The position numbers were made by a program, and so were the translations under genes. A stretch of 64,000 nt of DNA from Tenacibaculum agarivorans. Lineage in GTDB: Bacteria; Bacteroidota; Bacteroidia; Flavobacteriales; Flavobacteriaceae. Below, piece after piece: positions 209 to 39,355 of the stretch. The notes under the pieces were generated by a model. The model made no database searches, was not told where the DNA came from, and saw only the letters and a program-made list of their open reading frames with translations. Within the stretch, counting starts at the first letter, position 1. Each line of letters opens with the position of its first letter. The stretch lies in contig NZ_MSMP01000003.1 in the NCBI RefSeq assembly GCF_001936575.1, positions 173,229 to 237,228 of the forward strand. Direction: 5' to 3'.

Positions 209-1960
209 TTGATAATCAAAAAAATAAACTTCAAATACTTTGTTATAATTATATGTAATCTTCTGTTTTTTCTTTCTAATAAAACAATATATAGTCAACA
301 AAATATTGCAAATCAGATATCTATAATAACTAATGAAGAACGTAATTTTATTTTAAATACCGATACTAATAAAGTAGAAGATGTACTTTTTGATGTATGG
401 TTAAAAGAACCAAACAAAGTAGTTACCTACAATACACTGTATTTAAAGAGAGGAAAAAATACAAATAACGAAAACATAAAATATGTTAGTTATTACTATT
501 TAAGTCTTTATTATAAAAATCGGTTATCAAAATTTGAAACTGCTATTTCTTATGCAGATTCTGCATTTACTGCAGCAAAAAAAGTTGGAATTCCAAGTAA
601 ACTGATAAAAGTACTTAACCTAAAAGGAAATTCTGAGTTTCAACGAGGAAGCTACCAAAATGCATTGGAAGTATATTTACAAGCTCAAAAAATGGCTAAG
701 GAATTTAACCTTTATGAGGAAGAAATTTATTCGATAGGACATATTGGACATATTAAAAAAGAATTAAAAGAATATAAGGAAGGAATTGAATTATATAATG
801 AAATATTGCAGCTATTAACTTTAGAGAAGTATAAAAGTATTAACTCATATAATGGAGCTTACACTAATGCAATTAACGTGTTATCAATTTGTCATAGAGA
901 ATTAGGAAATACTCAAAAAGCAATTGAATTATGTAAAGAGGGACTATCATTTATTAACAAATTAGATATTACTACAACAACTAAAATGGATAAAGCGATG
1001 TTATTATCTAATATGGGAAGGGCATACACTTTTCAAGGAGATTATAAGACAGCTTTGAATAATTTATATTTGGCACAAACAATCTTTTCAAGTGAAAATA
1101 TAACAAAAAATCATATTTACTTTCATAATCAATTGTTTATTGCTGAAGTGCTTAACAACCAACATCAGTATAAAGAAGCACTTGTTACACTTGAAGAGAC
1201 GATTGCACAAGCTAAAGGTGAAATCTATTCGGATATTTTTTTAGACATATGCGACTTGGCTGTTGAATTGAGTAATAAAATTAAAAACAATGAAAAAGAA
1301 CTGAATTACAGCAGATTAAGAAATAAGATTAGCGACTCTATACATACTGAAAACATACGTACTAGAAAACTTTTTAATAAAGAACTTAAAAAAAAGAATC
1401 ATGAACTATCTTCTGACAATAGTTTACAATCAAAAAGGTTAGGAAGAACAAAAATTATAATCATTGTATTATTAATAAGTCTACTGGGGATAGTAATTGT
1501 TTATGTATACAACCATTTAAAAAATAAAAAGAAATTTACAGAATTGCTAGATAAAATAGAGCATATAGAGCAAAACAAATCATCCGCTCAACTTTCCATT
1601 TCTGATGAAAAGGCAGCCAAAATATTATTAAAATTAGAAAGTTTAGAGCAGAAAGGATTCTTTCTTCAGAAAGATTGTAGCTTACATAAAACGGCCACAA
1701 AATTGAAGACTAATACCACTTATTTATCTAAAATTATCAACTCCTATAAGCACAAAACATTCAAGGAATACATTAATGAAATAAGAATAGCATTTATTTT
1801 ACATCAAATAAAAGAAAATCCACGCTTCCGCCATTATACTATCAAAGCTATAGCAGAGGAAACGGGATATAAAAGTATTAATACATTAAATCAAGCTTTT
1901 AAAAAACAAACACAATTAAGTCTCTCATATTATATCAAACAATTTAATGTAAAGTCCTAA
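209..1960 (+). CDS. Membrane-anchored TPR sensor with cytoplasmic AraC-type DNA-binding domain
   Basis: The 583-aa protein has a hydrophobic N-terminus like a signal peptide. A long helical region of tetratricopeptide-like repeats follows (about residues 90-370), then one membrane segment near 415-435 (rich in I, V and L), and an AraC/XylS helix-turn-helix region over the last ~100 residues (ATKLKTNTTYLSKIIN and AIAEETGYKSINTLNQAFKK). This layout is common in Flavobacteriia: periplasmic TPRs are thought to sense a ligand or partner and the cytoplasmic HTH acts on DNA. The start is a TTG because no ATG in this frame precedes the signal segment. It converges with the next gene with no spacer. 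Target genes are unknown. Confidence 0.8.
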   Translation: MIIKKINFKYFVIIICNLLFFLSNKTIYSQQNIANQISIITNEERNFILNTDTNKVEDVLFDVWLKEPNKVVTYNTLYLKRGKNTNNENIKYVSYYYLSLYYKNRLSKFETAISYADSAFTAAKKVGIPSKLIKVLNLKGNSEFQRGSYQNALEVYLQAQKMAKEFNLYEEEIYSIGHIGHIKKELKEYKEGIELYNEILQLLTLEKYKSINSYNGAYTNAINVLSICHRELGNTQKAIELCKEGLSFINKLDITTTTKMDKAMLLSNMGRAYTFQGDYKTALNNLYLAQTIFSSENITKNHIYFHNQLFIAEVLNNQHQYKEALVTLEETIAQAKGEIYSDIFLDICDLAVELSNKIKNNEKELNYSRLRNKISDSIHTENIRTRKLFNKELKKKNHELSSDNSLQSKRLGRTKIIIIVLLISLLGIVIVYVYNHLKNKKKFTELLDKIEHIEQNKSSAQLSISDEKAAKILLKLESLEQKGFFLQKDCSLHKTATKLKTNTTYLSKIINSYKHKTFKEYINEIRIAFILHQIKENPRFRHYTIKAIAEETGYKSINTLNQAFKKQTQLSLSYYIKQFNVKS

Positions 1961-2800: not shown

Positions 2801-3091
2801 AATTATAGGTTTATTTGATTGAATTACTAAATGTAAAAAACCTAAAGAAATATTACTAAAACTATACTATCAATTTTATAAAATTGAAACTTGTAAAACA
2901 CACACAAACAACTGTTTTAAAGTTATTTAAGTTCTGTTTTTTGTTTCTGAATCTAACTATTGTTTTTCACTTTTAATTTTATAAAAATGACTTTCCTTCT
3001 TTTTTATAATAGCCGATTTACATATAATTTTAATAACGTATTCTAGTCGACCAGAATCTAAAATCATTTTTTAACTATGAATTTAAAAATC

Positions 3092-3775
3092 ATGAAAAAT
3101 ATATTTATAAAAGCTGTATTTACATTACTACTATTAACTATTATTAGTTGTCAAAATAACGAAGACGAAATCATTCCTGCTGAGAATACCACTACAGAAG
3201 AAACACTTATAGATACTGAAAAGCTTATCGAAGAGAATGAATTAAAAAAGGAGAATCTTTCACCAGAGTTAAAGAACGATATTCTACAAGAAAGAAGTAG
3301 TATCAGACGCTTTTGTTCTATTTTTAATCCTATTATTCCTATTGGCTATAGAGTACTTTATTACGAAAACAGTGTTCCTTGTGATTTTACTACTTTTCCT
3401 GCTAATTTGTATTTAGGACTTTATAATACGGCTGTCTGTATACATGATCCTATTATTATTCCTCCATCAACTACGCCATTAATTAAAAGAGCAGGATCTG
3501 GCTGTGATGATCACTATTGTATCTGGATCTTAGGAAAGAATTTTGATGATAATTCTTATGTAGATGTTCGAACTAAAAATGGTTCTGAAATTATTGCAAG
3601 CTATAGAGGAGCTGATCGTGTTTTAACCACAAGTGGTGCTGATCAACTAATTACAGTACGATTTAAAACTGAGTTTGAAAGAAGGGAGTTTGCCACTAGA
3701 GGACTACGTATTTGGGTAGTGAATCCTGATCCTAGAAAATGGGCAGATGGTAGACTGATTAAAAGATTTCAATAA
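3092..3775 (+). CDS. Lipoprotein upstream of the precursor-peptide array, possible IPT/TIG-like domain
   Basis: The 227-aa product has a lipoprotein signal ending in LLTIISC, so the mature N-terminal Cys should be lipidated. I chose the ATG at 3092 because it places a typical signal directly at the N-terminus; an in-frame ATG at 3077 is possible. An acidic linker follows, then a region with several Cys (FCSIF, VPCDF, AVCIH, GCDDHYC). A final ~75-residue segment (CIWILGKNFDDNSYVDVRTKNG) resembles an IPT/TIG immunoglobulin-like fold. The gene stops 27 bp before the first mini-gene, on the same strand, so it may belong to that locus. A role as immunity or surface-binding partner is speculation. 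Confidence 0.65.
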   Translation: MKNIFIKAVFTLLLLTIISCQNNEDEIIPAENTTTEETLIDTEKLIEENELKKENLSPELKNDILQERSSIRRFCSIFNPIIPIGYRVLYYENSVPCDFTTFPANLYLGLYNTAVCIHDPIIIPPSTTPLIKRAGSGCDDHYCIWILGKNFDDNSYVDVRTKNGSEIIASYRGADRVLTTSGADQLITVRFKTEFERREFATRGLRIWVVNPDPRKWADGRLIKRFQ

Positions 3776-3802
3776 CCTTTTAACTTAAACTTATTTTCAT
3801 CA

Positions 3803-3922
3803 ATGCACACAAACAAAGAATTCGACATCGAGGTCTTAGAAACTAGACTAGAAATGGCATCATGGTTACAAACGAAATGTAATCTAGGAGACCAAGAAGC
3901 ATGTGAAATGTTAGAAAGGTAA
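3803..3922 (+). CDS. RiPP-like precursor peptide 1 (39 aa)
   Basis: Reads MHTNKEFDIEVLETRLEM followed by a C-terminal part ASWLQTKCNLGDQEACEMLE plus R. The N-terminal half matches the four following mini-genes (consensus EFxIEELETRLEM), while the C-terminal half has Trp21, Cys26 and Cys34 (C-x7-C). A conserved leader with a variable core is the hallmark of precursor peptides. It is very close to peptide 2 in its core (SWLQ..CN.G...AC). The product family is not one I recognise. Confidence 0.75.
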   Translation: MHTNKEFDIEVLETRLEMASWLQTKCNLGDQEACEMLER

Positions 3923-3980
3923 TAATAGTTATTTAGATCTAAATCAAACAATAATAACATAAACATTTAAAAAAATATAC

Positions 3981-4106
3981 ATGAATAATCATAAAGAGTT
4001 TAACATGGAAATATTAGAAGCCAGACTAGAAATGGTTTCATGGTTACAAGCACAATGTAACATAGGAATCGGAGATGCTTGTGCAGCTTTAAGAGTAGAA
4101 AAATAA
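3981..4106 (+). CDS. RiPP-like precursor peptide 2 (41 aa)
   Basis: Begins MNNHKEFNMEILEARLEM; the C-terminal part contains VSWLQAQCNIGIGDACAALR. Trp21, Cys26 and Cys34 occupy the same positions as in peptide 1 (C-x7-C), so the two form one sub-group. It lies 58 bp after peptide 1 on the same strand. Shared leader and shared spacing support translation. Confidence 0.75.
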   Translation: MNNHKEFNMEILEARLEMVSWLQAQCNIGIGDACAALRVEK

Positions 4107-4115
4107 TAACATATT

Positions 4116-4223
4116 ATGAATACCAATAGAGAATTTAATATTGAGGAATTAGAAACTAGGCTGGAACTATGTACATGGGTTTTCCAAGGACAACAACTGG
4201 ATTGTGACACTGAGCCTAAATAA
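4116..4223 (+). CDS. RiPP-like precursor peptide 3 (35 aa)
   Basis: Begins MNTNREFNIEELETRLEL, then CTWVFQGQQLDCDTEPK. The core has Cys19, Trp21 and Cys30 (C-x10-C), unlike the C-x7-C of peptides 1 and 2. It starts only 9 bp after the stop of peptide 2, which indicates co-transcription. Confidence 0.75.
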   Translation: MNTNREFNIEELETRLELCTWVFQGQQLDCDTEPK

Positions 4224-4292
4224 TAATTCAAACCAAAAGGCGGAAACTGAAAAGCCTATAATAGAGTAAGTATATACTAAAATAAAGTAAAA

Positions 4293-4400
4293 ATGAAAAA
4301 CAACGAATTTAAAATTGAAGAACTAGAAACTCGATTAGAAATGGCTTGTCATTGGCAAAATGGAAGACCAGCAGATGGTTTTTATTGTGAAAGAGAATAA
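4293..4400 (+). CDS. RiPP-like precursor peptide 4 (35 aa)
   Basis: Begins MKNNEFKIEELETRLEM, then ACHWQNGRPADGFYCERE. The core has Cys19, Trp21 and Cys32 (C-x12-C). Its first 51 bases are nearly identical to those of peptide 5, pointing to a recent duplication of the leader with a changed core. A 69-bp gap with an imperfect short hairpin separates it from peptide 3. Confidence 0.75.
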   Translation: MKNNEFKIEELETRLEMACHWQNGRPADGFYCERE

Positions 4401-4451
4401 TGTATAACCATATAACAACGAAAAATAAGTATAACCTTAAATTTTATAATG

Positions 4452-4559
4452 ATGAAAAACAACGAATTTAAAATTGAAGAACTAGAATCTAGATTAGAAA
4501 TGCTAACATGTAGTGGTACTTGGAATAGAATTGATTGTCCACCACAACAACAAGAATAG
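4452..4559 (+). CDS. RiPP-like precursor peptide 5 (35 aa)
   Basis: Begins MKNNEFKIEELESRLEM, then LTCSGTWNRIDCPPQQQE. The core has Cys20, Trp24 and Cys29 (C-x8-C). Two tandem ATGs (4449 and 4452) could both start it; the second gives the same leader as peptide 4. It is the last mini-gene before the hairpin that precedes the enzymes. Confidence 0.75.
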   Translation: MKNNEFKIEELESRLEMLTCSGTWNRIDCPPQQQE

Positions 4560-4575
4560 GCATAGTGTAAAACCC

Positions 4576-4634
4576 AAAAGGTTGTCTAATAAGTGTTAAC
4601 TACAGTAAGGAACTACACTTTTAGACAGCCTTTT
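4576..4634 (+). terminator. Hairpin between precursor genes and enzyme genes (terminator or attenuator)
   Basis: The arms 4576-4596 and 4615-4634 pair over about 20 bp with one G-U pair and one bulge, around an 18-base loop. The descending arm ends in CCTTTTATTAT. The enzyme ATG follows at 4649. The position between small peptide genes and large enzyme genes suggests partial termination, giving more precursor than enzyme mRNA, or an RNA processing/stability element. Confidence 0.65.
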
Positions 4635-4648
4635 ATTATAAATGAGTT

Positions 4649-6640
4649 ATGAATAACATACTTAAGACAAAAATTTACGAAAATAATTCTTCGGATTTAA
4701 AGAGGAAGTTCATTATGCTATTAAACAAGTATCTTGAAAATCAAAAATTTCCTAAAAAGATCATATATGCGTTAGTTGACGAGAATTTTATTAATAGTAA
4801 CCCTTCGTACTACACGTATTATCCTTTTTTATTCCATAAGGCTTTCAGAGTTAATGATAAAGATATTCTAGAAACACTAACATTAGCAGGTTTTTTCTAT
4901 TATAAAGGGATTATAAGTATTGATGATATCTTTGATCAAAAAGCACCTGAAAATGTATTTAATAAGTATGTTATTGCTAATGTTTGTCAAGAAGAGACTA
5001 TTAAATTATTATCAAGCCTTTTTCCTAAGACTCATCCATTTTGGGAACTATGGAATTTGAGAAAAATTGAATATATAAAGGCTTATGATATGGATAGAAA
5101 TCCTGAAAAAATTATAAATCATGAGCAATTTGAAACCTTAGCAGATTACAAGTGTGCTTTTGGAAAAATAGCAATTGATAGTCTTTTTCACTTATCTACA
5201 TCTAAAAATGAAAATTTATATAAAAAAATCTTAGCATCACATAAATTTTTCTATGTAGGCTTTCAACTTATTGATGATATCACAGATTTTATCGAAGATA
5301 TGGAGAATGAACAATTCAACATATTACATTTTGAGTTGAAAAAGCTAAAAAATAAAGCTGTTATAGAAAAAGAGGGATTAAAAGATTTAAAAACAGAAAT
5401 GTACTTAAATGGAACCATAAATAAAGTACAAGAAATGGCCATAAAAAACCTTGAAAAGTCGCTTTCTTTTGTTAATGATATAGCATTAGATCAATGGAAA
5501 CAAGAGGTTCAAGGTTTATATAATACAGCTATTAGTCAATATTTAAATACTAGCGCATATGTATCTGTTTTTGAAACAAAGCAAATATTAGCTACTGAAG
5601 TAATTAAGCATAATAATCTAAAAATTGCAATAACAAAATCCATTGATTTCATAAATAAATCACAACAAAAGGACGGAAGTTGGAATGACTATTTTAATGA
5701 AGCCGGTGTTAGTAATTCTTGGACTACAGCATTTATGCTTACTTATTATTCAAAAGATATAACTATCGATCAAACTAATATTCTCAATCATGCTATAGAG
5801 TTTCTTAAGAAAACAAGAGGTAGTAACAAGCTTTGGGGATATAATAGTTCCTGGATACCTGATGCAGATTCTACTAGTTTTGTAATGCTAAGCTCTCTTA
5901 ACCATAAAAATGCTATAGATCCACAAACAATAGCTAATTGGTTAACATATCAAAATGAAGATGGTGGTTTTTCAACATATAACAATCCAAAAGAGGTACT
6001 CATTTCATTAAATTCTACTGCAATTCAAAATGTGGAAGGCTGGACACAATCTCACTTTTGTGTTAGTGCTACGGCATATTACGTATTATCTAAACTAGCT
6101 ATAAAAAATGATGCATTACATAAATTAAGAACGTATTTAATTCAAAAAATAAAGCAAGAAAAATCAATCCATTCTTACTGGTGGACCGATGCTATCTATG
6201 CCATAACTTTCTTAGTGAAAGGAGCTGAAATATATAAAGACACTGAATTACTAACAATCTGTAATCAATTTATTGATAATTATTTACAAGAAAAAAAAGA
6301 GTTAAATTACTTCTATCAAGGTTTATTATTAGACTGTATATGTAGTTCTGAACATCTATTTAAAATATATGAAAATGAAGCTCATAAAATAGTTATAGCA
6401 CTGTTACAAAATCAATTTTCAGATGGATCTTGGAAGGAAAGTTATGCACTTAGAATACCTGAACCTAGCGTGAAATCTCCAGAAAATCAAAATATACTTT
6501 GGACTAAAGCTGATCAAGGAACAAATATTTTAGTAAATGATTATCACCGTTTATTCACCACAGTGGTTTGTCTATCAGGATTAAGCAAGTATATAAAAGT
6601 TAAAAATGAAACTGAAAAACAAATTGTTTTACATGGATAA
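4649..6640 (+). CDS. Isoprenyl-diphosphate-synthase-like domain fused to terpene-cyclase-like alpha/alpha barrel
   Basis: The 663-aa protein has two parts. Residues about 60-300 carry both aspartate-rich motifs of class I prenyl-transferring enzymes: DDIFD at 92-96 and FQLIDDITD at 205-213. Residues about 320-655 show QW-type repeats of the prenyltransferase/squalene-cyclase fold (QQKDGSW 339-345, QNEDGGF 425-431, QFSDGSW 589-595). DADST at 405-409 stands where class II cyclases have DxDD, so the usual catalytic third Asp is replaced by Ser. It is predicted cytosolic, with no signal or membrane segment. It follows the precursor array and overlaps the next gene. It may add or cyclise an isoprenoid on the peptides, or the barrel may act in a LanC-like way; a free-standing terpene synthase is the alternative. 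Confidence 0.7.
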   Translation: MNNILKTKIYENNSSDLKRKFIMLLNKYLENQKFPKKIIYALVDENFINSNPSYYTYYPFLFHKAFRVNDKDILETLTLAGFFYYKGIISIDDIFDQKAPENVFNKYVIANVCQEETIKLLSSLFPKTHPFWELWNLRKIEYIKAYDMDRNPEKIINHEQFETLADYKCAFGKIAIDSLFHLSTSKNENLYKKILASHKFFYVGFQLIDDITDFIEDMENEQFNILHFELKKLKNKAVIEKEGLKDLKTEMYLNGTINKVQEMAIKNLEKSLSFVNDIALDQWKQEVQGLYNTAISQYLNTSAYVSVFETKQILATEVIKHNNLKIAITKSIDFINKSQQKDGSWNDYFNEAGVSNSWTTAFMLTYYSKDITIDQTNILNHAIEFLKKTRGSNKLWGYNSSWIPDADSTSFVMLSSLNHKNAIDPQTIANWLTYQNEDGGFSTYNNPKEVLISLNSTAIQNVEGWTQSHFCVSATAYYVLSKLAIKNDALHKLRTYLIQKIKQEKSIHSYWWTDAIYAITFLVKGAEIYKDTELLTICNQFIDNYLQEKKELNYFYQGLLLDCICSSEHLFKIYENEAHKIVIALLQNQFSDGSWKESYALRIPEPSVKSPENQNILWTKADQGTNILVNDYHRLFTTVVCLSGLSKYIKVKNETEKQIVLHG

Positions 6641-8693
6641 AAATATACCTAGAATATCAAATGAAGTTGAAATTATGCCATTTGATAATGGTGGTTATTT
6701 AGTTCACCATAAGAAGTTAGGATATCGAATCAACATTAATACCATAACCTATCAATTATTAAGTTTAATAGATGGTAAACTCACTATTGAAGAAATAATT
6801 AGAGCTTTTAAGCAACGCTATGAAATCAATTTAAAAAAAGAGAATGTTCTTGATATTTTGTATCAAAAGTTAGCTAAATATCATATCATAGAAAACGAAC
6901 ATTTTGAATTTAAGCCTAAAGAAAAACCATCTTACTTAAAATTAAGCTTTACAGTGGTCAAAAAAGATTGGATTGATGGAATAGTTTCTAAAATGGGATT
7001 CCTGTTTTCAAAGAAAATATTTTATCCTACATTATTTGCCATGGTCATTTTTATGGCATTTGTTATACTCTTAAATATAAATACCGTAAAATCAGATTTA
7101 GCAACAATAAACACAGCCGATGGGAGCCTTTATTTTTTAATTTTTGGAATTGTTGTTGTATTACACGAACTCGGGCATGCCGCTGCTTGTAATAAGTTTG
7201 GCGCAAAGCATGGAGATATTGGATTCGGGTTTTATTTACTATCTCCAGTGATGTATGCAGATGTTTCTGATGCTTGGAAACTAAAGAAAAGTGAACGAAT
7301 TATTGTAAATCTAGGAGGAATCTACATACAGCTGATCATTGCAAGTATTTTTGCATGTATTTATTTAATTACCAACAATAATTTTTTATTAATCCCAGCA
7401 TTTAGTATAGGTGGACTGAGTATTCTATATAATCTAAACCCCTTCTTTAGAACAGATGGATATTGGGTATTATCAGATTATGTAGGAATAGCAAATCTTA
7501 GGGAGAATTCTAATATTGCATTAAGTAGCTTTTTTAAAAGAAAAAAGAATACAGTAACTAACCTTTTTTCTTTAAAAAACATTTTATTGGCCTTATATGC
7601 ATTGATTAGTATAGGCTTTATTTTTGTATTTCTTTTTGTCATTCTCATACAAAACCCAAATTCAATTTTTAATTATCCTTACAATTTTATTCAGTACATA
7701 AAATTAGTGTTTACAACACAAGAAATACATTTAAATGAACTGAAAACATTAATATTACCTACTTTGTTTTTTATTATTTTGTTTAGGTTTTTAGTACGGT
7801 TTTATAAAACTAAAATCAGTTCATTATCTAAAGTAGAGAAAAAAAAGAGTATTATACTCGGTGTTAAAATCATTTTAGCAACTGTATTTTTTCTTTCAGC
7901 AGTTGGTAAAACACTTAGTTTTAATTCTTTTTCAAGAAATATTAATGAATTTGTATTTATTCCATATCAAATAATTCCATACGGAATATTACTAATAGAA
8001 TATAGTTTAGCTATCGGTTTCATGACATTTATTTTTTCTAGACAAATAGCTAAAATCTCTTTTGTGTTTTTAATCTTAATGACAATATCCTATAGTTACG
8101 GTCATTTTACTCTAGACATAAAAAAGTGTGGTTGTTTTGGATACTTCAAATTTTTAACCCCAAGTAATTATTTTATTTATATAGTTAAAAATGTCTCATT
8201 AATTATAGCTTGTCTATATATTTTAAAATATACTAAGAATATAACTATCAACAAGCGATTACTAAAGACAACTATTTCAATATTCACTGTATTTGTATTG
8301 AGTTTTTTCGCTTATAAAACAGAAGTTAAATTTATTCGTGATTTTGCTAAAACAAACATAGGTAAAGTACTAAGTAATATTTTACCCGAAAAGGACCATG
8401 TAGTAAAAGAATATCAATATGTATTTTTGTTTTCTCCAAAATGTCAACATTGCTTAGATGTAATTCCGAAAATTGAAAAAATTAAGCATACAGTTGATTT
8501 AATTGGAATAACTTCAGTTAAAAATGAAAAAGAATTGAAAAATTTATCTACTGATTTTCAAGTAAGAATGATCAGTTCTGAAGGCATATCAAAATTGTCT
8601 AAAACTGTTCCTAAAATATTCGAAATAAAAAACGATACCATTCAAAATGTATTAAGCGTACAACAGTTTCTAAAAAACGTTAAACTAAAATAG
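6633..8693 (+). CDS. Four-domain membrane maturase: PqqD-like RRE, M50 site-2 protease, MauE-like, thioredoxin-like
   Basis: The 686-aa product starts (ATG 6633, overlapping the previous stop; 6606 is an alternative) with a PqqD-like domain (residues 1-90, LGYRININTITYQLLSLIDG), the fold that binds RiPP leaders. Next come membrane segments with a zinc protease site HELGH (178-182) and the distal NPFFRTDGYW motif (269-278) of M50 site-2 proteases. A multi-pass region at about 400-560 with KCGCFG (498-503) resembles MauE/DoxX-like redox proteins. The C-terminal ~100 residues are thioredoxin-like with CQHC at 604-607. The paired Cys of the peptides are natural substrates for the redox half and the leader for the RRE and protease. 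The domains are seen; the peptide substrate is inferred. Confidence 0.75.
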   Translation: MDKNIPRISNEVEIMPFDNGGYLVHHKKLGYRININTITYQLLSLIDGKLTIEEIIRAFKQRYEINLKKENVLDILYQKLAKYHIIENEHFEFKPKEKPSYLKLSFTVVKKDWIDGIVSKMGFLFSKKIFYPTLFAMVIFMAFVILLNINTVKSDLATINTADGSLYFLIFGIVVVLHELGHAAACNKFGAKHGDIGFGFYLLSPVMYADVSDAWKLKKSERIIVNLGGIYIQLIIASIFACIYLITNNNFLLIPAFSIGGLSILYNLNPFFRTDGYWVLSDYVGIANLRENSNIALSSFFKRKKNTVTNLFSLKNILLALYALISIGFIFVFLFVILIQNPNSIFNYPYNFIQYIKLVFTTQEIHLNELKTLILPTLFFIILFRFLVRFYKTKISSLSKVEKKKSIILGVKIILATVFFLSAVGKTLSFNSFSRNINEFVFIPYQIIPYGILLIEYSLAIGFMTFIFSRQIAKISFVFLILMTISYSYGHFTLDIKKCGCFGYFKFLTPSNYFIYIVKNVSLIIACLYILKYTKNITINKRLLKTTISIFTVFVLSFFAYKTEVKFIRDFAKTNIGKVLSNILPEKDHVVKEYQYVFLFSPKCQHCLDVIPKIEKIKHTVDLIGITSVKNEKELKNLSTDFQVRMISSEGISKLSKTVPKIFEIKNDTIQNVLSVQQFLKNVKLK

Positions 8694-8758
8694 TTTTAAG
8701 ATTCGGATTACTGTATAATCTCATTTTAAATACTATTTAAATGTTGTACTTTTATACT

Positions 8759-9022
8759 ATGAAAAGTACAATTATCATACAGAACTTAAAATGTTCAGGA
8801 TGTTCAAATACAATTACTAAAAAAGTATCTCAACTTCATAATATATCTAATGTAGAAGTTAATGTGGAAGATTCAATGGTTAGTTTTGATCATACTACTG
8901 ATAATGATTTAGATGTAGTAAAAGCAACTTTATTTAATCTTGGATATCCTGAAGAAAATGACAAGAATTCTATCTCTAGGAAAGTAAAATCCTTTATTAG
9001 CTGTGCTAATGGTAGAATATAA
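8759..9022 (+). CDS. Small HMA-type metal-binding protein
   Basis: The 87-aa protein carries KCSGCSNTITKKV, a variant of the heavy-metal-associated CxxC motif (here C-S-G-C), then the usual beta-alpha-beta pattern and a GYPEE loop typical of copper chaperones. A C-terminal extension contains one more Cys. ATG 8759 is preferred over 8741 because the domain begins there. It lies 65 bp after the maturase gene and before a strong terminator, so it could share the transcript; it could equally be an independent copper carrier. Confidence 0.75.
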   Translation: MKSTIIIQNLKCSGCSNTITKKVSQLHNISNVEVNVEDSMVSFDHTTDNDLDVVKATLFNLGYPEENDKNSISRKVKSFISCANGRI

Positions 9023-9044: not shown

Positions 9045-9084
9045 AAATGCAGGAGAGTTATAATTAACTTCTTCCTGCATTTTT
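9045..9084 (+). terminator. Intrinsic terminator after the peptide locus
   Basis: Perfect 10-bp arms AAATGCAGGA (9045-9054) and TCCTGCATTT (9073-9082), followed by T residues. It closes the transcription unit that runs from the precursors to the HMA gene. Confidence 0.75.
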
Positions 9085-37314: not shown

Positions 37315-37477
37315 GTGTTTAATAGATACTAAAATGATTTAGAGCATTTATTTAATGAGTATTACATCGAATTAAATAGGTTTGTTCAGTTTTTATCATG
37401 TTAACAATTCATGTTTTTTAGGTTAAATCTTGTTTATTTATGAAATACATAAAATTTACAATGTAAAATCATCAATA

Positions 37478-39355
37478 ATGAAAAAAAACATACTGCTTTT
37501 AATCAATTTACTTATAATTAACTTTCTGTATTCACAATCTATAGAAGTAACTCTTGATTTTAGTCATAAACATGTAGTAGGTACAGTAGATACATTTGAA
37601 AGATCTAAATTTATCACCATTCATTCTGCTAATCACGAAGAATTAACAGCTGGTCAACAAAAATTAATGGAATATCTAATCAATGACTTAGAAGTTTATT
37701 ACGGTAGAGAAGCTGGAACATTAACTAATTTTGGTCCTTTATATCCTGAAAAACATATCAAGGGGTTACAAGATTATAATACCTACTATAAACAAAATCA
37801 CTTTGCTCATCAACTTGAAAAAGCTCAAGAATTGGTATTAGCAGGACAATACAGCTTATATGATGTATTTGTATCAGCAGCAAAAGACAATCATGCTTTA
37901 GCAGGTAAAAATTATGGGGCATATGTATGTGATTATTTACGTAATGTAAATGGAACGGGAGGAATAAACGGACTACCTAGAGCTAAATATATTGAACTAC
38001 TTAACGAACCTTTATGGGAACAAATTGATCAGTATATAGTTTGGAAAGGTGGAGGTCCAAATAAGGAAGAAGAAAAAGTAATTTTAAGTGAAATTTTCAC
38101 TTTCCATAAAGAAGCTGCTAAAGAAATTCATAGACAATTACCAGGTACTAAAGTTGGAGGATTTGCAGAAGCATGGCCAGATCCAGAATCTAGAGATTTT
38201 TTCAATTGGGAAACACGTTGGAAAACCTTTATTGATGACAATGGAGCAGATATGGATTATTTTTCATTTCATTTATATGATAAACACTGTTTAGGAACTA
38301 AAAAGACCTATCGTATGGGAGGGAATTTAGAGGCTTTCATGGATTTACTTTCACATTACAGTCATTTGACTTTAGGAAAAGAAAAACCTTTCTTAATAAC
38401 AGAATATGGAGGTAGATCTCATTGTTATGAAAATAGTGGTACAAGAAGTGACATTCATGATTGGCTATTCACAAGTTCTATGAATGCTATGATGATGCAA
38501 TTTATGGACCGAACAGATATGATAGAAAAAGCTATTCCATATATCATGGCTATTTGGACACCTGAATGGAATATTTTTAGATTAGATCTTCCTATTAATA
38601 AACAAGATGTATTTTCAGAATATATAAAGTTCTATGAATTATGGAAAGGTGTAAATGGGACTAGAAAAGTAACAACATCTACTGATCTAGATTTACAAGT
38701 AGATGCTTATAGTGATGGAAATAAAACCTATCTAATTCTAAACAATATTGATAATAAAGCTGTAACCGTAAATGTAAAAGAATTAGGTCTTTTAAAAAAT
38801 GAGATTTCAAATATAACATCGAGACATTTTCATTATAAAAACTCAGATTTTAAATTAGATACCAATACCTATAAAAACTTACCCAAAAAACTAAAAATAG
38901 GAGGATTTGGTACTAGAATTTTAGTTTATGAGACTAAGAATACTCCAGATATTGAATTTACATCAACAGAAACAAGAAATTATGCTACTGAATACAAAAA
39001 AAAGATAACAAAGAATACCGCTATTCATTTTGACATTAATAGCATAAATAAAGGAATGAATGGCGCTGCATTGTTGAAATTAGGATTGGGAAGAGATCAT
39101 GGTTTATCTTTACAACCGAAGGTTAAAATCAACGAGGAATTATTAAGCGTACCTAGAGATCTTCGTGGAGATGCACAAACTGATAAAGCTTCCTTTTTTG
39201 GAATGTTAGAAATTAAAGTTCCTCATAATTTAATAAAAGAAAATAATATTGTTACAGTTGAATTCCCTGACACAGGAGGATATATAACAAGTGTAGTACT
39301 GCGTTCATTCAATATGAACAAAGGAAATGTAAAAGTAACGAAGAAAAGTCTTTAA
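37478..39355 (+). CDS. Secreted GH86-like beta-agarase/porphyranase
   Basis: The 625-aa protein has a signal peptide (start at ATG 37478, which gives it cleanly). A TIM-barrel-like region has Glu177 in IELLNEPLW and Glu309 in FLITEYGGRS, the acid/base and nucleophile pattern of clan GH-A enzymes. VGTVDTFERSKFITIH near the start resembles GH86. Beta-sandwich modules follow (about 380-625). It would cut agar- or porphyran-type galactans from red algae. It has no T9SS domain and no SusCD neighbours, so it is not in a standard polysaccharide locus. Confidence 0.65.
   Translation: MKKNILLLINLLIINFLYSQSIEVTLDFSHKHVVGTVDTFERSKFITIHSANHEELTAGQQKLMEYLINDLEVYYGREAGTLTNFGPLYPEKHIKGLQDYNTYYKQNHFAHQLEKAQELVLAGQYSLYDVFVSAAKDNHALAGKNYGAYVCDYLRNVNGTGGINGLPRAKYIELLNEPLWEQIDQYIVWKGGGPNKEEEKVILSEIFTFHKEAAKEIHRQLPGTKVGGFAEAWPDPESRDFFNWETRWKTFIDDNGADMDYFSFHLYDKHCLGTKKTYRMGGNLEAFMDLLSHYSHLTLGKEKPFLITEYGGRSHCYENSGTRSDIHDWLFTSSMNAMMMQFMDRTDMIEKAIPYIMAIWTPEWNIFRLDLPINKQDVFSEYIKFYELWKGVNGTRKVTTSTDLDLQVDAYSDGNKTYLILNNIDNKAVTVNVKELGLLKNEISNITSRHFHYKNSDFKLDTNTYKNLPKKLKIGGFGTRILVYETKNTPDIEFTSTETRNYATEYKKKITKNTAIHFDINSINKGMNGAALLKLGLGRDHGLSLQPKVKINEELLSVPRDLRGDAQTDKASFFGMLEIKVPHNLIKENNIVTVEFPDTGGYITSVVLRSFNMNKGNVKVTKKSL

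What the first reader, a model, noticed from the sequence alone, without database searches (positions are those of the whole stretch)
3803..9022. Undescribed RiPP-like locus: five two-Cys precursors, a prenyl-synthase/cyclase fusion and an RRE-protease-redox maturase
Seen: five mini-genes with a common leader and variable two-Cys cores, followed by two unusual multidomain enzymes on the same strand and a terminator at 9045-9084. Known: PqqD-like domains bind RiPP leaders, M50 proteases cut membrane or leader segments, and MauE/thioredoxin-like domains handle disulfides. Inferred: the leader docks on the PqqD domain, the core is modified by the isoprenoid-type enzyme, the two Cys are oxidised or linked, and M50 removes the leader at the membrane. 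No radical SAM, YcaO, LanM or ABC exporter is present, so no standard RiPP class fits.
Basis: partly seen in the sequence, partly recalled or inferred. Interest (0 to 1): 0.93.

Follow-up and report, generated by a model that had tools for sequence, protein, structure and literature searches.

The report
Terpene-capped, disulfide-closed peptide factory
This bacterium carries five tiny peptide genes beside two large fused enzymes that would likely attach a terpene to one tryptophan of each peptide and fold it into rings, and are then predicted to cut the peptide loose and join its two cysteines; the terpene step belongs to a class of peptide maturation already published, while its pairing with a fused cutting-and-oxidising enzyme looks like a new variant.

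The parts
3803..3922 (+). precursor 1, 39 aa, core ASWLQTKCNLGDQEACEMLER
3981..4106 (+). precursor 2, 41 aa, core VSWLQAQCNIGIGDACAALRVEK
4116..4223 (+). precursor 3, 35 aa, core CTWVFQGQQLDCDTEPK
4293..4400 (+). precursor 4, 35 aa, core ACHWQNGRPADGFYCERE
4452..4559 (+). precursor 5, 35 aa (alternative start 4449), core LTCSGTWNRIDCPPQQQE
4576..4634 (+). strong hairpin followed by a T-rich stretch between precursors and enzyme genes; proposed partial terminator or processing site
   Evidence: -23.7 kcal/mol, z -5.3; at the same gap 10 of 13 relatives that I picked fold with z -2.9 or lower (mononucleotide shuffles)
4649..6640 (+). 663-aa PC-type maturase: prenyltransferase (P) plus class II terpene cyclase (C)
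4667..5530 (+). P domain, aa 7-294, trans-isoprenyl diphosphate synthase fold; FARM D92xxxD96, SARM Q206xxDDxxD; no GKxxRP motif
5606..6604 (+). C domain, aa 320-652, monodomain class II terpene cyclase like MstE; D405-A-D407-S aligned with MstE's DADT
6633..8693 (+). 686-aa RRE-M50-MauE-thioredoxin fusion (alternative upstream start 6606)
6633..6902 (+). RRE/PqqD-like leader-binding domain, aa 1-90
6942..7817 (+). M50 site-2-type protease, HELGH at aa 178-182 and NPFFRTDG at 269-276
7830..8237 (+). MauE/DoxX-like helices, aa 400-535, with CGC (499-501)
8397..8648 (+). thioredoxin-like domain, aa 589-672, with CQHC (604-607)
9045..9082 (+). terminator-like hairpin, then T run
   Evidence: -17.9 kcal/mol, z -5.8
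209..1960 (+). TPR + AraC-type regulator, possible regulator of the cluster (uncertain)
   Evidence: relatives near clusters in L032, L035, L043/L103 and L064, weaker ones in L049 and in L107, which has no precursor

Best explanation
The locus encodes five leader-bearing peptides whose conserved core tryptophan is likely prenylated, and the attached prenyl chain predicted to be cyclised, by one 663-aa prenyltransferase-cyclase fusion, after which a 686-aa membrane fusion would bind the leader, cut it off and oxidise the two core cysteines to a disulfide. Shown by sequence or structure comparison: the precursors, the universal Trp, the P and C folds with their Asp motifs, the RRE-M50-MauE-Trx order, and the co-variation of MauE-Trx with two-Cys cores. 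Inferred from characterised relatives: Trp as acceptor, a C10-C20 donor, cyclisation on the peptide. Inferred only: leader cleavage by M50, disulfide formation by MauE-Trx outside the inner membrane, the order of steps, and export through the M50 protein. The biological role (antagonism or signalling) is unknown; I lean to a secreted lipopeptide acting on other bacteria.
Confidence: 0.72

Rival explanations
1. The prenyl group goes onto Cys (as in protein farnesyltransferase, whose beta subunit is also an alpha/alpha toroid), and the Trp is only a recognition residue.
For: Two Cys in every precursor of this window; protein farnesyltransferase is among weaker structural hits (rank 39).
Against: 40 of 83 peptides have no Cys although the same kind of enzyme is beside them; all have Trp. 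The toroid matches class II cyclases far better than farnesyltransferase and keeps the cyclase Asp motif.
Confidence: 0.05
2. The 663-aa protein first makes a free cyclic terpenyl diphosphate (drimenyl diphosphate synthase-like), which is then transferred to the Trp, so cyclisation precedes attachment.
Confidence: 0.12
3. The MauE-thioredoxin part keeps the core Cys reduced, or serves a metal-bound form, rather than forming a disulfide; the HMA-domain protein downstream would then be a metal partner.
For: MauE/DoxX-like and thioredoxin folds can run in either direction (recalled); an HMA gene follows in this window.
Against: The HMA gene has no relative in the other loci; both Cys motifs are predicted on the outer side; the distance between the two Cys varies from 8 to 13 residues within the window, unlike a fixed metal site.
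Confidence: 0.15
4. The mini-ORFs are small regulatory or structural peptides and the enzymes make an unrelated meroterpenoid.
For: No product is known.
Against: Enzyme and leader share 9 genomes of 11 each in 395; a domain like those solved with RiPP leaders sits in the partner protein; cores vary while the leader is fixed.
Confidence: 0.03

Closest known systems
[quoted passage not shown] 2024, doi 10.1016/j.chempr.2024.07.026; known to me only through the review PMC13290415 and reference lists)
   Same: One protein with a prenyltransferase and a terpene cyclase domain acting on a core Trp; the P domain of ChrPC is trans-IDS-like, as here; the C domain of NctPC is described as MstE-like, as here.
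   Different: Here a five-precursor cluster with two-Cys cores and an RRE-M50-MauE-Trx partner; whether ChrPC's cluster has such a partner could not be read. NctPC has an ABBA-type P domain, unlike this one.
ComQ/ComX and PalQ/PalX (Trp-prenylating trans-IDS-like enzymes)
   Same: Trans-IDS fold, first and fifth FARM Asp kept, small Trp-bearing precursor.
   Different: No cyclase domain reported; ComX has no obvious leader motif; ComQ's second Asp motif is degenerate, here it is intact.
MstE, monodomain class II terpene cyclase (PDB 6sbb-6sbg)
   Same: Fold and profile match over nearly the full length, DADT/DADS motif.
   Different: MstE is a single domain and acts on a prenylated benzoate, not a peptide.
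M50 RiPP proteases: daptide HExxH protein (NF041824) and YydH/LiaK (NF058609); EpeP
   Same: M50 protease of a RiPP cluster (E 8.7e-39, 133.7 bits to NF041824).
   Different: Score below the curated cut-off (300); fused here to MauE and thioredoxin.

Membership tests
PC-type (prenyltransferase-terpene cyclase) RiPP maturases | Prenyltransferase domain and class II terpene cyclase domain in one chain | tested here: met
   Structure: aa 7-294 trans-IDS, aa 320-652 MstE; profile E 1.8e-41
PC-type (prenyltransferase-terpene cyclase) RiPP maturases | Encoded next to a ribosomal precursor with a Trp in the core | tested here: met
   Five precursors, Trp in each; Trp in all 86 distinct cores of the relatives
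PC-type (prenyltransferase-terpene cyclase) RiPP maturases | Product carries a cyclised prenyl group on Trp | not testable with these tools
   Needs expression, mass spectrometry and NMR
Class II terpene cyclases | Asp motif DxD(D/T/S) in the toroid | tested here: met
   DxD(S/T) in 42 of 42 aligned relatives, aligned with MstE's DADT
Canonical isoprenyl diphosphate synthases (making free prenyl diphosphates) | Both full Asp-rich motifs plus the GGKxxRP motif (IPP binding, recalled) | tested here: not met
   GKxxRP 0 of 42, RRG 0 of 42; second FARM Asp in 17 of 42
ComQ family | Trans-IDS fold with FARM and a degenerate second Asp motif, no cyclase domain | tested here: not met
   QxxDDxxD intact in 42 of 42; cyclase domain present. 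It may still work like ComQ in choosing Trp.
Daptide or epipeptide M50 proteases | Score above the curated NCBIfam cut-off | tested here: not met
   133.7 against 300 (NF041824) and 80.8 against 225 (NF058609)
RRE (PqqD-like) leader-binding domains | RRE fold at the N-terminus | tested here: met
RRE (PqqD-like) leader-binding domains | Binds the EF.IEELE.RLEM leader | not testable with these tools
   Needs a binding assay
Lanthipeptides, sactipeptides, YcaO-modified RiPPs | LanBC/LanM, radical SAM or YcaO enzyme encoded in the operon | tested here: not met
   The operon's proteins match none in Pfam or NCBIfam; radical SAM genes do occur beside some related clusters

The most novel reading that the evidence does not exclude
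A 'release-and-oxidise' machine: one membrane protein captures a terpene-capped precursor by its leader, cuts it inside the membrane and, on the far side, closes its two cysteines through a built-in MauE-thioredoxin relay, so that leader removal, export and disulfide formation of a polycyclic-terpenoid RiPP are one coupled event. The module and the cysteine pair come and go together in the branches where they can be compared, which makes it a modular second maturase of PC-type RiPPs in Bacteroidota, giving doubly ringed products (terpene cap plus disulfide ring) of a kind not described in the papers I could search.
Probability: 0.4. Interest if true: 0.78.

Novelty: new variant of a known kind. 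Interest (0 to 1): 0.6.

Why it matters
It gives an easily searched signature (F.VEELE.R[LYF]E[MF] leader, then Trp within a few residues) for a family of likely terpene-capped peptides spread over Bacteroidota. Enzyme hits came from 11 of 395 genomes drawn from the phylum and 13 of 397 from the family, own genome included; 10 and 10 of these have a P domain, so about 2.5%. Cores vary freely behind a fixed leader. The relatives offer ready natural variants for asking how cyclisation depends on prenylation (P-only, P-C, and a three-domain enzyme), and the fusion is a testable case of a protease joined to a redox relay; coupling of cleavage, export and oxidation is not reported for RiPPs in the papers that I could search.

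Tried and rejected
Rejected: Cys prenylation (about half of the cores have no Cys); ordinary prenyl diphosphate synthase activity (no GKxxRP motif); a further copy of the precursors elsewhere in the genome (none); the HMA gene as a part (no relative in the other loci). No sign of the whole 686-aa protein in the plasmid collection (0 records cover 80% of it) and no PADLOC match for either enzyme. NCBIfam has no family for 8 precursors tried (5 of the window, 3 of relatives); Pfam gave three chance-level hits below cut-off for 10 tried. No structural match to Ord1 or ComQ appeared in the 50 rows shown; this says nothing against kinship.

Errors and corrections: the precursor regex missed two of the window's five; they were added by hand. 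The first trimming of cores cut four cores wrongly and gave 99 of 103 with Trp and a Fisher value of 0.008; one search used the first leader match and gave 103 of 103 and 6e-4. One search's output was cut in the middle (most of L036-L038); one search repeated the PC, M50, MauE-Trx and precursor parts in full, not the CarboxypepD and radical SAM parts. Sets overlap: 5 of the 20 regions (L092, L095, L096, L101, L103) are contigs or near copies already among the 55 loci; distinct cores and grouping at 80% identity (52 groups) take care of this. From the hits I left out the own genome, G368 (already L064) and G751 (near copy of G546) when fetching the 20 regions. Loci without a precursor: 5 of 55 (L025 and L052 start about 100 bases before the match, L062 and L066 hold gene fragments, L065 unexplained). 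Two P-domain regions without a confident precursor: L099 (weak Trp-less candidate) and L109 (a 146-aa gene fragment). Sigma-70-type promoter matches were at the shuffle level (36 against 43); a search for a Bacteroidota TTG/TAnnTTTG pattern (recalled) found nothing. Of 13 gaps folded, L048 (26 bases, z -0.3), L012 (-2.1) and L015 (-2.5) were weak.

Literature: nine searches of open-licence PMC papers only; for MauE with RiPP, the ten listed of 141 were unrelated; one search returned none. Papers: PMC13290415, sections 8 and 9 read, first part of its references and passages; PMC5331326, PMC10853753, PMC12715784, PMC10352776 and PMC10885120 passages only; Hubrich et al. 2024 not held, seen only as a reference; other papers only as listings.

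Full report
WHAT IS THERE. Five short ORFs on the + strand (3803-4559) share a leader ending in LE.RLE(M/L) and have variable cores; they are followed by a 663-aa ORF (4649-6640) and a 686-aa ORF (6633-8693) that overlap by eight bases, then a terminator-like hairpin. The leader is found nowhere else in the genome above control level. Between the last precursor and the first enzyme gene is a second strong hairpin, 4576-4634 (-23.7 kcal/mol, z -5.3 against dinucleotide shuffles). At the equivalent gap of 13 relatives that I picked, 10 fold with z -2.9 or lower, with unrelated sequences; L012, L015 and L048 do not (mononucleotide shuffles). I read it as a device that gives more precursor than enzyme (inference).

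WHAT IT ACTS ON. A scan of species genomes with the alignment gave 55 loci, nearly all from Bacteroidota, with three from Balneolota and two MAGs labelled otherwise. With the leader profile 50 of the 55 have a precursor in the fetched locus. A regex that does not ask for Trp found 83 peptides; with the two window peptides it missed there are 77 distinct, all with Trp in the core, against a shuffle mean of 53 and maximum of 61, and no other residue is universal. Cys is absent from 40 of the 83. With the 20 regions added, 103 of 103 rows and 86 of 86 distinct cores have Trp, first at core position 2 or 3 in 72 of 86; this profile includes six core residues and so leans towards Trp. Two genomes have the leader but no PC enzyme (L132, L133): of their 4 peptides 1 has Trp, and two of the three in L133 have Phe in the motif CCS(W/F)TDS(S/N)C; L133 has a radical SAM protein and an M50 protease instead. 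Trp thus follows the PC enzyme rather than the leader, on a small control.

Two separate searches of the same 395 genomes drawn from the phylum, one with the enzyme profile and one with the precursor profile, hit 11 genomes each and share 9 (expected 0.3; hypergeometric 5e-15; relatedness not removed, though the hits lie in 11 genera each). Of the two enzyme-only genomes one (G141) has only a cyclase-like match, broken by stop codons, and one (G320) a P-only gene; the two precursor-only genomes are those of L132 and L133. Among 20 regions taken from the phylum and family draws, 16 have a P domain, of which 14 have a precursor and 14 an M50 gene; the 4 with only a cyclase domain have neither, two of these 4 matching across stop codons. 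P-only enzymes with precursors (L049, L105, L110) suggest that prenylation stands alone in some lineages and that cyclisation is an added step.

WHY MAUE-TRX BELONGS TO THE CYSTEINES. Among 52 groups of clusters, all 6 with MauE-Trx have only two-Cys cores (22 of 22 peptides of the representatives), against 11 of 46 groups without (Fisher 6e-4). Groups are related, so the tree matters more than the p value: L015 lies among the MauE-Trx rows (98/95 with L014 and L016), has no MauE-Trx and no Cys, by loss or by never having had them; L032b, in a distant branch, has both, with MauE-Trx as a separate gene; and on the same Flavobacterium contig the neighbouring cluster L032a has neither (L035 repeats this). 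Against a strict rule, 11 groups have two or more Cys in every precursor without the module, some beside radical SAM (L040, L051, L061) or a weakly thioredoxin-like gene (L027); L038 (radical SAM) and L064 (thioredoxin) have mixed cores.

COMPARISON WITH THE KNOWN. The review PMC13290415 (sections 8 and 9 read) describes ChrPC, with a trans-IDS-like P domain that modifies an internal Trp with C10-C20 donors and a C domain that cyclises the prenyl group, and NctPC, with an ABBA-type P domain and an MstE-like C domain; both go back to Hubrich et al. 2024, which is not in the library. The window's protein fits the description of ChrPC in each feature I could test, so the class is known. Which branch of my tree ChrPC belongs to I cannot say. 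ComQ (passages) needs the same two FARM Asp but has a degenerate second motif, so membership in the ComQ family is not met while the working principle may be the same. Nine literature searches gave no report of an M50-MauE-Trx partner; that library holds open-licence papers only.

VERDICT. A member of the PC-maturase RiPPs, in a variant with a leader-binding protease fused to a redox relay that co-varies with a core cysteine pair. The chemistry is inferred, not shown.

Noticed in passing
P0050 (1035 aa, metagenome protein): Seems a three-part enzyme: P domain, the window's cyclase type, and a further squalene-cyclase-like toroid at its end.
   Followed up: partly
L013:10010-13973: Two different PC enzymes in tandem serve one cluster with three two-Cys precursors whose Trp positions differ.
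   Followed up: partly
L133:7282-11664: Same leader type with three Cys-bearing precursors, a radical SAM protein and an M50 protease but no PC enzyme: the leader/M50 pair seems shared with another RiPP chemistry.
   Followed up: partly
L038, L040, L041, L051, L061: Radical SAM genes beside PC clusters, hinting at a third core modification (Pfam for L038, L040, L051; by homology for L041, L061).
   Followed up: no
L099:3-260 and 3196-4218: A P-only enzyme with only a weak, Trp-less, Cys-rich peptide candidate nearby.
   Followed up: no
L021:8722-9894 and similar: A CarboxypepD_reg-like protein sits between precursor and PC gene in many relatives but is missing from the window's operon.
   Followed up: partly
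L015, between 2808 and 3115: What looks like a decayed remnant of a further precursor behind the single intact one.
   Followed up: no
window 8741-9022: HMA-type metal-binding protein downstream of the M50 fusion, not found beside the other clusters.
   Followed up: partly
window 3077-3775: Unknown 232-aa lipoprotein-like protein ending 27 bases before the first precursor, without relatives in the other loci.
   Followed up: partly
window 37430-39355: Protein with porphyranase domains, which would fit a degrader of red-algal polysaccharides.
   Followed up: no
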